Source: Dyella acidisoli
GTDB taxonomy: Bacteria; Pseudomonadota; Gammaproteobacteria; Xanthomonadales; Rhodanobacteraceae
DNA: 64,000 nucleotides
Direction: 5' to 3'
NCBI RefSeq assembly: GCF_030160295.1
Contig: NZ_BSOB01000046.1
Location: forward strand, 378,673 to 442,672
The position numbers were made by a program, and so were the translations under genes. The notes under the pieces were generated by a model. That model saw nothing but the letters and a program-made list of their open reading frames with translations. It was not told the origin of the DNA and made no database searches. Positions 13,059-18,719 of this stretch are shown one piece after another. Position 1 is the stretch's first letter; every line of letters begins with the position of its first letter.

Positions 13059-14350
<1,292 letters not shown>

Positions 14351-14362
14351 AATGCGCGTGCA

Positions 14363-15394
14363 TCATGAACCCTGCGGCAAGATCAACATCGCATCCCCAT
14401 ACGAGAAAAACCGATACCGCGCCTGCACCGCATGCCGATAAGCCCCCAGCATGAACTCCCTCCCCGCCAAGGCCGACACCAGCATCAAAAGGGTCGATTG
14501 CGGCAGATGGAAGTTGGTAATCAATCCGTCGATGCTGGTAATGCGATAGCCGGGGAAGATAAAGATCTGCGTTTCGCCGGCGAACGGGCGTAGCTCGCCG
14601 TTCACCGTGGCGCTTTCCAATGCGCGCACCACCGTCGTGCCGACCGCAATCACCCGACCACCTGCGCGGCGCGTGCGATGAATCTGCTCGACCAGCCCCG
14701 CGCCGACGTTGAGCCATTCGCGATGCATTTTGTGATGGGAAAGTTCTTCGGTGCGCATGGGCTGGAATGTGCCCGCGCCGACATGCAAGGTCACGTATCC
14801 GAAATCCACGCCCATTTCGCGCAGCTGCTTCAGCGATGTCTCGTCGAAATGCAAACCAGCCGTCGGCGCAGCCACCGCGCCCGGCTCGCGCGCATACACC
14901 GTCTGGTAGCGCTCCATGTCGCTGGCATCCGCGTGCCGTGAGATGTACGGAGGCAGTGGCATTTCGCCGAGTTTCAGCAGCAAGCGTTCCAGTGGCTCGG
15001 GTGATTCGAAGCGCAAATGGAAAAAGCTGTCGTCACGTCCAAGCACCGTGGCATGGCTGCCGTCCGCCAGCACGATCACCGTGCCTTCGCGCGGCTTCTT
15101 GCTTACGCCGAGCTGCACAGTGGCTTCATGCGCGCCGGTCACACGCTCGATCAGGATCTCTACCGCGCCGCCGCTTGGCTTCTGCCCATACAAGCGCGCT
15201 GGCAGCACACGCGTGTCGTTGAACACGAGCAAATCGCCCTTGCGCAACATGGAAGGCAGGTCGCGAAACATCCGGTCCTGCCATGTATGCGTCGGCACGT
15301 TGAGCACCAACAGGCGGCTTGCGCTTCGCTGGGGTAGAGGTGCCTGAGCGATCAGTTCGGGCGGGAGATCGAAGTTGAAATCGGACTTCTTCAC
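14363..15394 (-). CDS. queA: QueA, S-adenosylmethionine:tRNA ribosyltransferase-isomerase
   Basis: A 343-residue enzyme of normal length that adds the epoxycyclopentanediol moiety to preQ1 at position 34, giving epoxyqueuosine. Family segments [39 protein letters not shown] and [11 protein letters not shown] are all present. It starts at MKKSDFNFD and is the first gene of its cluster. It lies downstream of the rtcB terminator on the same strand. Confidence 0.96.
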
Positions 15395-15588: not shown

Positions 15589-16812
15589 TCAACCCTTCAC
15601 GCACAGTACCTGCCGTAGCGTATGCACCACTTCCACCAAGTCAGTCTGCGCAGCCATCACCGCATCGATCGACTTGTACGCCGCAGGTGATTCATCGATC
15701 ACACCCGCGTCCTTGCGGCATTCGACGTGCGCGGTTGCCTGGCGATGTTGCGACAACGTGATGTTCTGGCGCGCGGCGGTACGACTCATCACACGCCCGG
15801 CGCCGTGACTGCAGCTGTGGAAACTTTCCGGGTTGCCCTTGCCACGCACGATGTAGCTGCGTGTGCCCATGCTGCCCGGGATGATCCCCAACTCGCCTTC
15901 CCTGGCGCTCACCGCACCTTTACGCGTGACCAGCAGCGATTCACCGCCATGCGTTTCGCGCTGCACATAGTTGTGGTGGCAGTTCACGGCCATCTTCTCC
16001 AGTTGGAACTTCGGCAGGCGATGGCGCATTTCGCCCAGTACCCGCTCCAGCATCGCTTCACGGTTGTGCCGGGCGTAGTCCTGCGCCCAAGACACGGCCT
16101 CCACGTAATCGTCGAACAGCGGCTCGCCTTCCATGAAGAAGGCTAGATCCTTGTCCGGCAGATGGAAGCCGAGCACGCGATGCGCCAGTTGCTCACGCGC
16201 ACGCTCGATGAAGTACGTACCGATCAAGTTGCCAGTGCCACGCGAACCGGAGTGCAGCATCACCCACACTGCGTCTGTCTCGTCGAGACAGATTTCGATG
16301 AAGTGATTGCCGCCGCCTAGCGTGCCGAGCTGCTTGTCGAGCTTGTCGATGCGAATGTGGCGATGCTTGGCCTTGATCGCTTCCAGACGCTCGTACAGTC
16401 CTGACTCAGTCAACCGCGTTTCGATACTGGCTGGCATGCGGTGATGATCGCCGCCACGTCCGTTGCCGACCGGCACGCCACGCTCGATGCTCGAGCGCAG
16501 TTGTGCGAGGTTGTCCGGCAGATCCTTCGCACGCAACGTTGTGCGCACCGCGGCCATGCCGCAGCCGATATCCACGCCGACCGCGGCCGGAATGATCGCG
16601 CCGCGCGTAGGCACTACCGAACCGACCGTTGCACCTTTGCCGAGGTGCACGTCCGGCATCACCGCCACCCACGGACCGACGAACGGCAACGCGGCGATGT
16701 TCTTCAGTTGGCGATGAGCTTGCTCTTCCAGCGGCACGCCGCGCACCCAGCCTTTGATCGGCGTGGCGCTACCTTCGGCATGCAGCAGCTTGTATTGGGA
16801 TTGCGTTTCCAT
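15589..16812 (-). CDS. rtcB: RtcB, RNA-splicing/repair ligase
   Basis: A 407-residue ligase that joins RNA 2',3'-cyclic phosphate or 3'-phosphate ends to 5'-hydroxyl ends using GTP and Mn2+. Metal ligands are visible as Cys84 in GVDIGCGM, His170 in LGGGNHFIE, His187 in MLHSGSRG and His279/His280 in NCHHNYV. The guanylylated histidine is His336 in SCSHGAGRV. No residue is missing. It follows the slipin gene by 52 bp and ends at a strong terminator. No RtcA cyclase and no RtcR activator are in the window. Confidence 0.97.
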   Translation of the reverse strand: METQSQYKLLHAEGSATPIKGWVRGVPLEEQAHRQLKNIAALPFVGPWVAVMPDVHLGKGATVGSVVPTRGAIIPAAVGVDIGCGMAAVRTTLRAKDLPDNLAQLRSSIERGVPVGNGRGGDHHRMPASIETRLTESGLYERLEAIKAKHRHIRIDKLDKQLGTLGGGNHFIEICLDETDAVWVMLHSGSRGTGNLIGTYFIERAREQLAHRVLGFHLPDKDLAFFMEGEPLFDDYVEAVSWAQDYARHNREAMLERVLGEMRHRLPKFQLEKMAVNCHHNYVQRETHGGESLLVTRKGAVSAREGELGIIPGSMGTRSYIVRGKGNPESFHSCSHGAGRVMSRTAARQNITLSQHRQATAHVECRKDAGVIDESPAAYKSIDAVMAAQTDLVEVVHTLRQVLCVKG

Positions 16813-16864: not shown

Positions 16865-17989
16865 TTACTGCTTGAGACTCACTAGCTGCGTCAGCACGCC
16901 GTCCAGGCCGCCGAACACGGTGAGCTTGTCGATCTTCTCGGTGACCTTTTCCAAGGACTCCAGCTCCTTCAAGCGCATCAGCGTCGGGCTTTCCTCGATC
17001 AGCTTGGCCGTGTTGAGCAAGGAGCGCGTCGCGTTCGCTTCCTCACGACGGCGGATCACGTTGGCTTGGGCCGCCTTCTCCGCCTGCACCACGCTGTTGA
17101 GGATCTCTTTCATCTCGCCCGGCAGGATCACGTCCTTCACGCCCACACCAAGCACTTCAAGACCCAGTTCGCTCACGCGACCACGTACGTACGCGAAGAT
17201 GTCGGCATCCAGTGAGGCCTTGTCGCCGAGCAATTCGTCCAGCGTTTTGGCAGATACCGCCTTGCGCAAGCCGTACTGCAGTTCGCGGTACAAATAATCC
17301 CCGTACTTGGCGACTTTGGTACGCGCGGTGACCGGATCGACCACACGCACGCTCGCTGCGAGGTTCACGCGCAGACTTACCTTGTCGCGCGTCAACAGTT
17401 CCTGGCCGGACACCTCCATCGACTGCACGCGCAGGTCGATCACCTCGGCCGCCACGTTCTTGCGGAAATTCCAGAACGCATAAGCACCTGGCGTCAATGC
17501 GCGCACCAGCTTGCCATCGACGAACAGCAGGCCTGTCGACTCCACTGGCACGTCAACCGTCACGCCCACCTTGGATAGCACGCCAAGCTGACGCAAACGC
17601 GCCACCACGTTGGCATCCATCGCCAGAGATTCGGACATCCACACCAGTTGCACTTCGATCTGCACCAATGCATTCCAGTACAGCTTGCGCGTACCCGGCG
17701 CCAGCACGTCCTCGAGCTTGCCGTTCTTCAACACCAGGCCAACTTGGTCGGTACCGACGTCGGCCACCAGAAAGTGCTTGGCAAGCTCCTTATCGGTAGA
17801 CGCCATCAGCACTTCCGCATCGTTGCCGCCATATTCCGGGCGCGCGACGTTGTGCACCACGATCGCCATGCGGTCGAACGGATCGAAGTAGCGATATACA
17901 CCGGCCGAAAGTACGGCCTGCACTTGACGGTTGCGATACAGCAAACCGCGCTCGCCGTCGCCGATCACGATTTGCTTGATCCATAACAT
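16865..17989 (-). CDS. Slipin (SPFH/band-7 family) upstream of rtcB
   Basis: A 374-residue protein with an N-terminal region lacking a strong membrane helix, an SPFH domain (for example LTRDKVSLRVNLAASVRVVDP and VSELGLEVLGVGVKDVILPGEMKEILN) and a C-terminal helical segment (QAEKAAQANVIRRREEANATRSLL). It has a good ribosome binding site (AAGGAG). Slipins are known as membrane-scaffold proteins and are repeatedly found beside rtcB in bacterial RNA repair loci. The role in RNA repair is not known and is inferred only from this link. Confidence 0.85.
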   Translation of the reverse strand: MLWIKQIVIGDGERGLLYRNRQVQAVLSAGVYRYFDPFDRMAIVVHNVARPEYGGNDAEVLMASTDKELAKHFLVADVGTDQVGLVLKNGKLEDVLAPGTRKLYWNALVQIEVQLVWMSESLAMDANVVARLRQLGVLSKVGVTVDVPVESTGLLFVDGKLVRALTPGAYAFWNFRKNVAAEVIDLRVQSMEVSGQELLTRDKVSLRVNLAASVRVVDPVTARTKVAKYGDYLYRELQYGLRKAVSAKTLDELLGDKASLDADIFAYVRGRVSELGLEVLGVGVKDVILPGEMKEILNSVVQAEKAAQANVIRRREEANATRSLLNTAKLIEESPTLMRLKELESLEKVTEKIDKLTVFGGLDGVLTQLVSLKQ

Positions 17990-18369
17990 GGGAATACTCC
18001 TTCTTCATTTTCCCTTTTCGATCCGCCTGGATAGTCCATCACGCCTTCGAATCGTTAATGCGTGATGGTTGTTTGGATAATCAGAGGCGTAGCAGACCAT
18101 CCCTCGCGGGATACGGCTCGAAAATGATTCGCGCCGACAAAACTCAAAAAATGGAAATGCCCCTATACGTATGCAAAGCGGAATATTCGTGCCTCGCTTG
18201 TGGAGATAATCCTTTCCGTCGCATCTGTGCGGCATGCCGCATCCGCTGCACTTCGAAGATCATCCGCCCAAGCTTGGGACGGACATCCGGCTATACATCC
18301 GCTGCGTGAGCTGGCCGGTCACCATCCTTGGTGATCCATCCCACCTACGCACGGGGCATTCCCTCCTGA
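17990..18369 (-). other. Long leader between the tRNA-like pair and the slipin gene
   Basis: About 380 bases with no convincing gene. It holds several inverted repeats on the minus strand: CCATCACGC/GCGTGATGG near 18032-18066, TGCGGCATGCCGCA near 18228-18241, TCCGTCCCAAG/CTTGGGCGGA near 18261-18281 and GGATCACC/GGTGACC near 18318-18338. A GCAGCGGATG decamer occurs twice. It probably forms a structured 5' leader for slipin-rtcB. A degenerate sigma-54-like motif lies at 18180-18195. Confidence 0.4.
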
Positions 18370-18382
18370 AGGGCTTTCGCCC

Positions 18383-18453
18383 TGGTTGGAGCGGGAGTCG
18401 AACCCGCGACACTCGGATTAACAGTCCGATGCTCTACCCATCTGAGCTATCCA
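18383..18453 (-). ncRNA. tRNA-like RNA 2, Asn-type anticodon GUU, shortened acceptor stem
   Basis: A 71-base cloverleaf. D-arm GCTC/GAGC, anticodon stem TCGGA/TCCGA with canonical loop CTGTTAA (anticodon GUU), a five-base variable loop and T-arm GCGGG-TTCGACT-CCCGC are all intact. The acceptor stem has only 4 bp (TGGA/TCCA) and then an encoded A-CCA. The next bases outward (CAC and ACC) do not pair. It begins one base after the CCA of the other tRNA-like RNA and is followed at once by a GGGC-GAAA-GCCC hairpin. A tRNA finder may call it tRNA-Asn, but a 4 bp acceptor is not normal. Confidence 0.75.
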
Positions 18454-18454
18454 G

Positions 18455-18530
18455 TGGCTCGACGTGCCGGATTCGAACCGGCGGCCAACGGCATCACGTG
18501 TCGTTGCTCTACCCTCTGAGCTAACGTCGA
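18455..18530 (-). ncRNA. tRNA-like RNA 1, His-type anticodon GUG, abnormal anticodon loop
   Basis: A 76-base cloverleaf with a perfect 7 bp acceptor stem (TCGACGT/ACGTCGA), D-arm GCTC/GAGC, T-arm GCCGG-TTCGAAT-CCGGC, discriminator G and encoded CCA. The anticodon stem has an A-C mismatch (positions 30-40) and the loop is ACGTGAT, which puts C rather than the invariant U at position 33 and GUG at 34-36. A true tRNA-His would have C73. It is therefore unlikely to be a normal elongator tRNA-His. It lies upstream of slipin-rtcB on the same strand. Confidence 0.75.
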
Positions 18531-18719
18531 CTTCTCGCAACACCTTCGCACAAGCTTCGGCATACGCTTGAGGCAAAACCCCGCGCACCGGATGGACTTT
18601 TGAACCCATACCGCTGAAACCTGCCGATTTGGTGCTGCGTATTGCCGACTGTTTCCAATCGGCAATTCGTTTGGGCATACACGCCCGAATACTTTTCCTA
18701 ATCCCGCCTTGCTCGCACC

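What the first reader, a model, noticed from the sequence alone, without database searches (positions are those of the whole stretch)
18383..18530. Tandem tRNA-like RNAs with GUN anticodons upstream of slipin-rtcB
Seen: two complete cloverleaves in tandem, one base apart, both with encoded CCA. The first has anticodon GUG, C33 instead of U33, and an A-C mismatch in the anticodon stem. The second has anticodon GUU but only a 4 bp acceptor stem. Known: RtcB repairs 2',3'-cyclic-phosphate/5'-OH breaks, such as those made by anticodon nucleases, and tRNA-like or Y RNAs occur in some rtc loci. Colicin E5 cuts GUN-anticodon tRNAs between positions 34 and 35. Inference: these RNAs could be decoys, damage sensors or repair substrates for RtcB rather than elongator tRNAs.
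Basis: partly seen in the sequence, partly recalled or inferred. Interest (0 to 1): 0.88.

Follow-up and report, generated by a model that had tools for sequence, protein, structure and literature searches.

The report
Slipin-linked RNA with tRNA mimics
The two odd tRNA genes are probably not tRNAs for translation but parts of a roughly 490-letter folded RNA that sits just before a slipin gene in many bacteria, often in RNA-repair operons, and may work with that protein when tRNAs are damaged.

Summary
In detail: two tRNA-like cloverleaves lie in tandem on the minus strand before slipin-rtcB. They do not look like ordinary tRNA genes. The genome has separate tRNA-His(GUG) and tRNA-Asn(GUU) genes, and in relatives the anticodons drift while D and T arms stay nearly fixed. 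The cloverleaves are the middle of a larger conserved RNA of about 490 nt (18639-18153, minus): a 5' three-way junction, two tRNA mimics, a hairpin and a 3' domain closed by a long-range helix. Covariation is strong; Rfam 15 recognises only the tRNA parts. The 5' domain was aligned or found in 90 of 95 slipin loci of Gamma- and Betaproteobacteria. Searched for on its own, it was followed by slipin in 13 of 14 places; the 14th is cut by a contig end. It tracks slipin more closely than RtcB (50 of 80 loci). Where RtcR lies directly divergent, a sigma-54 site precedes the RNA in 12 of 12. The GUN/colicin E5 idea gains little support. Best reading: a dedicated RNA partner of slipin, comparable to Y RNA with Ro; a cis leader is the main rival.

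The parts
18641..18666 (-). conserved inverted repeat ATTGCCGATT..AGTCGGCAAT just before the RNA; operator/promoter element or extra hairpin
   Evidence: 11 pairs, 90.2% of cells paired, 8 with changes on both sides, 0 of 200 shuffles as high; coordinates
18536..18639 (-). 5' domain: 9-bp outer helix (18639-18631 with 18544-18536) enclosing a three-way junction (18624-18549)
   Evidence: covariance models R1 and R2; 92.2% of cells paired, 15 of 27 pairs with changes on both sides, 0 of 500 shuffles; coordinates
18458..18530 (-). TLS1, first tRNA mimic (called tRNA-His gtg), acceptor UCGACGU/ACGUCGA, followed by CCA 18457-18455
18387..18453 (-). TLS2, second tRNA mimic (called tRNA-Asn gtt) with 4-bp acceptor UGGA/UCCA
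   Evidence: the 4-bp acceptor pairs in 96.5% of cells of 43 relatives
18370..18383 (-). hairpin with GAAA tetraloop (AGGGCGAAAGCCCU)
   Evidence: 5 pairs, 93.5% of cells paired, 3 with changes on both sides; coordinates
18153..18363 (-). 3' domain closed by the 11-bp long-range helix GGGAAUGCCCC (18363-18353) with GGGGCAUUUCC (18163-18153), enclosing a long hairpin (18302-18167)
   Evidence: long-range helix 93.8% of cells paired, 8 of 11 pairs with changes on both sides, 0 of 200 shuffles; pairs only 40-60% when slid; coordinates
18141..18152 (-). T-rich tail after the closing helix (ATTTTTTGAGTT); possible terminator or attenuator
   Evidence: T fraction 0.44 in the tails of 27 selected loci against 0.18 in their leaders, 0 of 2000 random placements
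16865..17989 (-). slipin: SPFH/Band_7 protein, 374 aa, no predicted membrane span, extra N-terminal beta-rich part
   Evidence: PF01145, E 9.2e-28; hydropathy; AlphaFold2 model pLDDT 84.7
15589..16812 (-). rtcB, RNA ligase, 407 aa, 52 nt after slipin
   Evidence: PF01139, E 4.2e-125

Best explanation
The two cloverleaves are parts of one dedicated structured RNA of about 490 nt, encoded just ahead of a particular, probably soluble SPFH protein (slipin). Shown here: conserved architecture, covariation, position upstream of slipin on the same strand, drifting anticodons, and sigma-54 sites where RtcR is directly divergent. Inferred: the RNA is made when RNA damage switches the operon on; it presents two tRNA elbows (D/T-arm mimics) as docking sites, while the 5' and 3' domains bind slipin or a partner; the RNA-slipin particle then gathers tRNA-handling repair enzymes (RtcB, RtcA, RlaP) on damaged RNAs. 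It would do for slipin what Y RNA does for the Ro protein Rsr, which can fill the same slot in rtc operons. Identification as a dedicated non-translational RNA: about 0.95. Trans-acting partner/scaffold role: about 0.5.
For: Covariation along nearly the whole RNA. The 5' domain was found at E <= 0.05 in 47 of 52 slipin loci not used to build R1. R2 search of whole genomes, independent of slipin: 10 of 274 class and 5 of 299 phylum genomes; of 14 distinct places, 13 are followed by slipin on the same strand and 1 is cut by a contig end; two of the 14 (the window's genome and G057) had served to build the models. Twelve loci of other SPFH paralogs gave no R1 match at E <= 1 and one noise-level R2 match, L059 at E 0.45. 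One Beggiatoa locus carries three tandem copies of the unit before one slipin, which suits a self-contained RNA gene. T-rich tails follow the closing helix. RtcR lies near 16 of 80 loci; in 12 of 12 where it is directly divergent, a sigma-54 site lies just upstream of the 5' domain. RtcB, RtcA and RlaP accompany it. Slipin of this lineage lacks a clear membrane span. Literature: P. aeruginosa 'tRNA gene' PA4581.1, which by tag order precedes PA4582 of the RtcR-regulated operon, was among the most increased transcripts in a later isolate (passages of PMC8743555 and PMC8619066).
Against: No binding, expression or phenotype data. Every match at E <= 0.05 lies before slipin in the same orientation, which a trans-acting RNA would not need; this favours a cis leader. 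The RNA also occurs without rtcB nearby (14 of 54 fully flanked loci lack all five tested genes), so its role need not involve ligation. Some true-tRNA features persist: CCA after TLS1 in 29 of 43, and in TLS2 a 7-nt loop in 37 of 43 with U33 in 26 of those. The window genome has no RtcR, so induction by RNA damage is not indicated there. E. coli and Citrobacter leaders look reduced to a variant 5' domain and one T-arm and match neither ARAGORN nor R2.
Confidence: 0.5

Rival explanations
1. Cis-acting leader: the tRNA mimics in the 5' part of the slipin mRNA bind a tRNA-binding factor (an aminoacyl-tRNA synthetase, a nuclease or RtcB itself), or are cut and religated, and thereby set termination or translation of slipin-rtcB.
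For: Every match at E <= 0.05 is 5' of slipin on the same strand, also when the RNA stands between rtcA or rtcB and slipin inside the operon (L123, L127, L131, L139). The closing helix plus T-rich tail could be an attenuator.
Against: Three tandem units before one slipin in L122. In the loci where the closing helix is recognisable it ends 82 to 200 nt before the ATG, so there is no constant contact with the ribosome-binding site. Large and elaborate for a leader.
Confidence: 0.33
2. Decoy: the mimics occupy anticodon nucleases or other tRNA-attacking toxins and spare real tRNAs, with RtcB mending the decoy.
For: Association with RtcR/RtcB/RtcA/RlaP; variable loops could reflect an arms race; [quoted passage not shown]
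Against: TLS1 has no 7-nt anticodon loop in 32 of 43 relatives; loop sequence is not conserved; some loci keep the RNA without rtcB nearby.
Confidence: 0.1
3. One reading: GUN-anticodon RNAs as substrates or sensors of colicin-E5-like cleavage for RtcB.
For: Window anticodons are GUG and GUU. GUN is more frequent than 1 in 16: 4 of 11 seven-nt TLS1 loops, 10 of 37 TLS2 loops, 14 of 83 three-nt ARAGORN anticodons; odds raised from 0.03 to 0.05 after this recount.
Against: GUN is a minority everywhere and the loci share ancestry; 32 of 43 TLS1 have no 7-nt loop; the RNA tracks slipin more closely than RtcB.
Confidence: 0.05
4. Ordinary extra tRNA genes, or decayed tRNA pseudogenes, that translate His and Asn codons or do nothing.
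For: Good tRNA-model scores; CCA after TLS1 in 29 of 43 relatives.
Against: Normal tRNA-His(gtg) and tRNA-Asn(gtt) exist elsewhere. TLS1 and TLS2 are only 66% and 65% identical to them. TLS1 has G73 where the genuine tRNA-His has C73; TLS2 lacks a full acceptor stem. Structure is kept by compensatory changes while anticodons drift.
Confidence: 0.02

Closest known systems
The 'novel tRNA-like molecule' of SPFH/Band-7 RNA-repair modules (Burroughs & Aravind 2016, Nucleic Acids Res, gkw722; abstract recalled, paper not held)
   Same: tRNA-like RNA linked to an SPFH protein in RtcB-type RNA-repair systems; by my recollection the abstract names SPFH/Band-7 modules as scaffolds with a cognate tRNA-like RNA. 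Very probably the same RNA.
   Different: I could not read how far that paper describes it. The 5' three-way junction, tandem mimics, long-range closed 3' domain, anticodon drift, sigma-54 starts, threefold copy and slipin-only loci are worked out here and may or may not be in it.
Y RNA / YrlA with the Ro protein Rsr in rsr-yrlBA-rtcBA (Rfam RF02553)
   Same: tRNA-mimicking RNA beside a non-ligase partner protein in an RtcR-controlled rtc operon.
   Different: Sequence and order of arms differ. RF02553 scores only 37.3 bits (gathering score 69) across the TLS1-TLS2 junction; tandem real tRNAs of this genome give 24-26 bits. No TROVE protein in this genome.
tRNA-mimic translational operators (E. 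coli thrS type; recalled)
   Same: tRNA-like elements in an mRNA leader.
   Different: Much larger RNA, no synthetase gene directly downstream here (slipin and rtcB follow), anticodon not conserved.
tRNA arrays with translation-stress control (Anabaena trn operon, TrcR, PMC10272220; passages seen)
   Same: tRNA genes under a regulator whose target list also holds rtcB and a slipin-family gene.
   Different: Those tRNAs form a long array on a megaplasmid; the mimics here have no conserved anticodon. Nine of 95 loci here also carry ordinary-looking tRNA arrays upstream.

Membership tests
Elongator tRNA (His, Asn) | 7-nt anticodon loop with a conserved, decodable anticodon | tested here: not met
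   TLS1 loop 7 nt in 11 of 43 (not met); TLS2 loop 7 nt in 37 of 43 with U33 in 26 of 37, but the anticodon is not conserved; 41 anticodons and 28 non-3-nt calls among 111
Elongator tRNA (His, Asn) | 7-bp acceptor stem and identity elements (G-1:C73 for His; recalled) | tested here: not met
   TLS2 acceptor 4 bp; TLS1 has a 7-bp acceptor but G73; the genuine tRNA-His of the genome has C73
Elongator tRNA (His, Asn) | charged and used on ribosomes | not testable with these tools
   needs experiment
YrlA / Y RNA | match to RF02553 at gathering score | tested here: not met
   37.3 bits against 69
YrlA / Y RNA | partner Ro/TROVE protein (PF05731) | tested here: not met
   none found in the genome
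SPFH-associated tRNA-like molecule (Burroughs & Aravind 2016) | tRNA-like RNA adjacent to an SPFH/Band-7 gene in RNA-repair loci | tested here: met
   the definition itself is recalled from the abstract
SPFH-associated tRNA-like molecule (Burroughs & Aravind 2016) | sequence and structure equal to the published one | not testable with these tools
   paper not held
RtcR/sigma-54 regulon | -24/-12 site just upstream of the RNA | tested here: inconclusive
   12 of 12 loci with RtcR directly divergent; the window locus gave no site and its genome no RtcR

The most novel reading that the evidence does not exclude
A third kind of bacterial tRNA-mimic ribonucleoprotein, beside tmRNA-SmpB and Y RNA-Ro: a ~490-nt RNA with paired tRNA elbows forms the core of a soluble SPFH (slipin) particle that organises RNA repair. 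Tools such as ARAGORN call its mimics as stray tRNA genes, and E. coli carries a shrunken version that keeps one T-arm.
Probability: 0.4. Interest if true: 0.85.

Novelty: new variant of a known kind. Interest (0 to 1): 0.62.

Why it matters
SPFH proteins are known mainly as membrane scaffolds. A soluble lineage tied to a large tRNA-mimicking RNA would give them an RNA-based role and supply a missing partner of many RtcR/RtcB operons. It makes the question 'what is slipin doing in RNA repair?' directly testable. It also means that 'tRNA' genes next to slipin may be misannotated non-coding RNAs; ARAGORN makes such calls in 82 of 95 loci, and P. aeruginosa PA4581.1, whose rise in a later isolate was left unexplained (PMC8743555), may be one. 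Natural E. coli strains carry a slipin-RlaP version (1621 of 5426 genomes hold at least 80% of the slipin-plus-leader query).

Tried and rejected
GUN/colicin-E5 substrate: not the conserved feature, though GUN is over-represented. Extra or decayed tRNA genes: rejected. Y RNA membership: rejected. The YrlA hit over the TLS1-TLS2 junction probably reflects T-arm-then-D-arm order; real tandem tRNAs give 24-26 bits, less than the 37.3 here, and I had no control with real tRNAs equally close together. Vault idea: full-length slipin hits major vault protein in Foldseek (E about 1e-10 to 1e-8), but stomatins rank higher, and the N-terminal part modelled alone (pLDDT 92.7) had no match at E <= 0.001 and no vault protein in the 50 of 674 rows shown; not supported. 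A profile search of PDB sequences gave 22 sequences at E <= 1, SPFH proteins by name except one 'hypothetical membrane protein'. Link to queA-tgt (queuosine in GUN tRNAs), which lies next to rtcB here: tblastn found queA in 4 of 98 held loci, close kin only (L034, L038, L063, L064); many loci have short flanks, so this is weak evidence for chance synteny. Mobility: slipin at E <= 1e-30 in 9 of 72,556 plasmid records, all typed non-mobilizable and 7 of them over 1 Mb, and in no phage record at E <= 1e-10. The outermost helix 24-30/682-688 of the consensus was not supported (25 of 200 shuffles as high). I had first taken the encoded CCA for unconserved; a recount corrected this for TLS1.

Full report
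Observation. Two tRNA-like genes lie head to tail on the minus strand before slipin and rtcB: ARAGORN tRNA-His(gtg) 18530-18455 and tRNA-Asn(gtt) 18456-18383, 54.3 and 55.3 bits with Rfam's tRNA model. C33, the A-C mismatch and the 4-bp acceptor of the second are as described. The genome has 48 tRNA-model matches, four of them in the window. I took the other 44 places; ARAGORN reads 44 tRNAs there, among them one normal tRNA-His(gtg) and one normal tRNA-Asn(gtt). The two mimics are 66% and 65% identical to these, and at best 70% and 71% to any of the 44; the median nearest-neighbour identity among the 44 is 0.79.

Relatives. A slipin search of 61 genomes gave 18 with a strong ortholog (E 2.1e-38 or better), in 6 of the 16 genomes of the genus, so the trait is patchy. 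ARAGORN saw tRNA-like genes just upstream in 16 of 18; the other two, L041 and L049, show degenerate versions by eye. A scan of named genomes returned 80 more loci from Gamma- and Betaproteobacteria (the best 80 of at least 352 relatives). Over the 95 of 98 loci with at least 700 nt upstream, ARAGORN calls a tRNA-like gene between -700 and -200 in 82 (two calls in 29) and none in 13. The 111 calls carry 41 different anticodons, and 28 have no 3-nt anticodon.

The larger RNA. Alignment and RNAalifold of 43 close loci (columns with half or more gaps dropped, 725 of 1355 kept) show one RNA: a 5' three-way junction (consensus CAGCGG..CGGGUUC...CCCG.CYGGYGC...GYRUAYCG), TLS1, TLS2, hairpins, and a 3' domain closed by GGAAACGCCCC/GGGGCGUUUCC with a T-rich tail. 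For the 5' domain, 92.2% of cells pair, 15 of 27 pairs have changes on both sides, and 0 of 500 shuffles reach the observed values. By helix, 19 of 21 exceed all 200 shuffles; the TLS2 D-arm hardly varies and says nothing, and the outermost helix 24-30/682-688 is not supported (25 of 200). Shuffles do not remove relatedness; the sliding controls partly do. The TLS1 loop is 7 nt in 11 and 4 nt in 14 of 43 (ten of these 14 are GCAN, four are strict GNRA); the TLS2 loop is 7 nt in 37 of 43; D and T arms are nearly invariant (loops were cut assuming 5-bp stems). Features that still look like tRNA: CCA after TLS1 in 29 of 43 (after TLS2 in 12), and U33 in 26 of 37 seven-nt TLS2 loops. GUN anticodons: 4 of 11 seven-nt TLS1 loops, 10 of 37 TLS2 loops, 14 of 83 three-nt ARAGORN calls, above 1 in 16 but a minority among related loci. 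The window copy alone folds into the two long helices, z = -4.5. Rfam at gathering score finds only tRNA in this RNA, in the window and in four of the seven other loci that I searched; in L136, L158 and L159 it finds nothing there.

Distribution. Model R1, built on the 43, and R2 found the 5' domain at E <= 0.05 in 47 of the 52 loci not used for R1 (40, 7 more). Not found at that level: L050, L110, L134, L135, L140; the last four give weak hits in the expected place. With the 43 aligned loci that makes 90 of 95. E-values are rough. Twelve loci of other SPFH paralogs gave no R1 match at E <= 1; R2 gave one noise-level match, L059 at E 0.45. Whole-genome searches with R2 gave 10 of 274 class genomes and 5 of 299 phylum genomes, the window's own genome being in both; the filters are strict, so these are lower bounds. 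Of the 14 distinct places, 12 have slipin within the held 3 kb, a 13th has it 1.4 kb downstream (L157), and the 14th (L152) ends at a contig edge. Two of the 14 (the window's genome and G057, which is L044's) had served to build the models, and L144 seems to be the contig of L121 (both 21,139 bases). The window genome has one copy.

Neighbours. Pfam names recurrent neighbours RtcB, RtcR, RtcA, RlaP and an HNH protein. In 80 loci, by tblastn with one query each: rtcB 50, RtcR 16, RtcA 10, RlaP 8, HNH 9; of 54 loci with at least 4 kb on both sides, 37 have rtcB and 14 have none of the five. In 12 of 12 loci where RtcR is directly divergent from the RNA, a TGGCACR-N4-TTGCW-like site (score 10 or more of 12) lies just upstream of the 5' domain. 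Taking a start about 12 nt after its GC (recalled), transcription would begin some 8-16 nt before the domain in 11 of them and farther in L111. Elsewhere such scores occurred in L080, L120 and L125 only. In L123, L127, L131 and L139, rtcB (and in L123 and L139 rtcA) stands between rtcR and the RNA, and the RNA stays with slipin. The window genome has no RtcR and no TROVE protein.

Unit character. L122 (Beggiatoa MAG) has three tandem copies of the unit before one slipin (R1 detects two 5' domains, the third is read by eye; ARAGORN calls three pairs of mimics). The tail after the closing helix is T-rich in 27 loci chosen by the look of the helix (0.44 against 0.18; 0 of 2000 random placements); two of the 27, L067 and L132, probably hold another helix. 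Both points suit a self-contained RNA gene with its own 3' end, though an attenuator is possible.

Slipin. The protein is Band_7/SPFH. The 16 sequences of A1 lack a strong hydrophobic span (maximum 19-residue hydropathy 0.97-1.78, L043 highest), while the 10 SPFH paralogs tested have one (2.09-3.21). So this lineage is probably soluble. AlphaFold2 and Foldseek place the core with stomatin and leave the N-terminal beta-rich part without a clear solved relative.

E. coli. Slipin followed by RlaP occurs between yjbD and lysC; 1621 of 5426 genomes hold at least 80% of the slipin-plus-leader query. The leader has a sigma-54-like site and a T-arm hairpin but no cloverleaf (by eye), and neither R2 nor ARAGORN finds it.

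Literature seen. Passages of PMC7790460 (YrlA as possible nuclease inhibitor), PMC9650030, PMC8619066 (P. aeruginosa operon with PA4582, rtcB, PA4584, rtcA and divergent rtcR), PMC8743555 (tRNA gene PA4581.1 among the most increased transcripts), PMC1250226 (PA4582 3.2-fold in the hydrogen peroxide table), PMC13086221 (an SPFH gene inside the rtc locus), PMC10272220, and PMC6514570, PMC11090510 and PMC5870498. That PA4581.1 is this RNA is inferred from tag order; its sequence was not examined. Burroughs & Aravind 2016 is recalled only. In the listings and passages that I saw from the searches for a slipin/SPFH-RtcB-tRNA-like link there was no other description of it.

Conclusion. The finding is real but was read too narrowly. 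The conserved object is a slipin-linked RNA with two tRNA mimics, often in RNA-repair loci. I favour a Y-RNA-like partner or scaffold role (about 0.5) over a cis leader (about 0.33). After the final recount I raised the odds of the GUN reading from 0.03 to 0.05; the others are unchanged.

Noticed in passing
L122 2395-3975: Three tandem copies of the RNA unit before one slipin in a Beggiatoa MAG.
   Followed up: partly
L077, L105, L109, L112, L113, L116, L118, L129, L141 upstream of slipin; also L157: Arrays of ordinary-looking tRNA genes (3 to 24 further ARAGORN calls in nine of 95 loci) precede the RNA, as if the repair operon also supplied replacement tRNAs.
   Followed up: partly
window 18641-18666: Conserved inverted repeat ATTGCCGA..TCGGCAAT just before the RNA in the close set; may be the operator of an unknown regulator replacing RtcR.
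   Followed up: partly
L161 4599-6523 and the yjbD-lysC interval of many E. coli: Slipin-RlaP island with a sigma-54-like leader and T-arm hairpin; 1621 of 5426 E. coli genomes hold at least 80% of the query; a zeta-toxin-family gene sits beside it in L161.
   Followed up: partly
window 16865-17989: The slipin has three similar beta motifs (around residues 13-48, 82-115, 152-185; by eye) and no clear membrane span; the N-terminal part has no clear solved relative.
   Followed up: partly
window 13059-15394: tgt and queA (queuosine for GUN tRNAs) lie next to rtcB; queA was found near slipin in 4 of 98 held loci, close kin only.
   Followed up: partly
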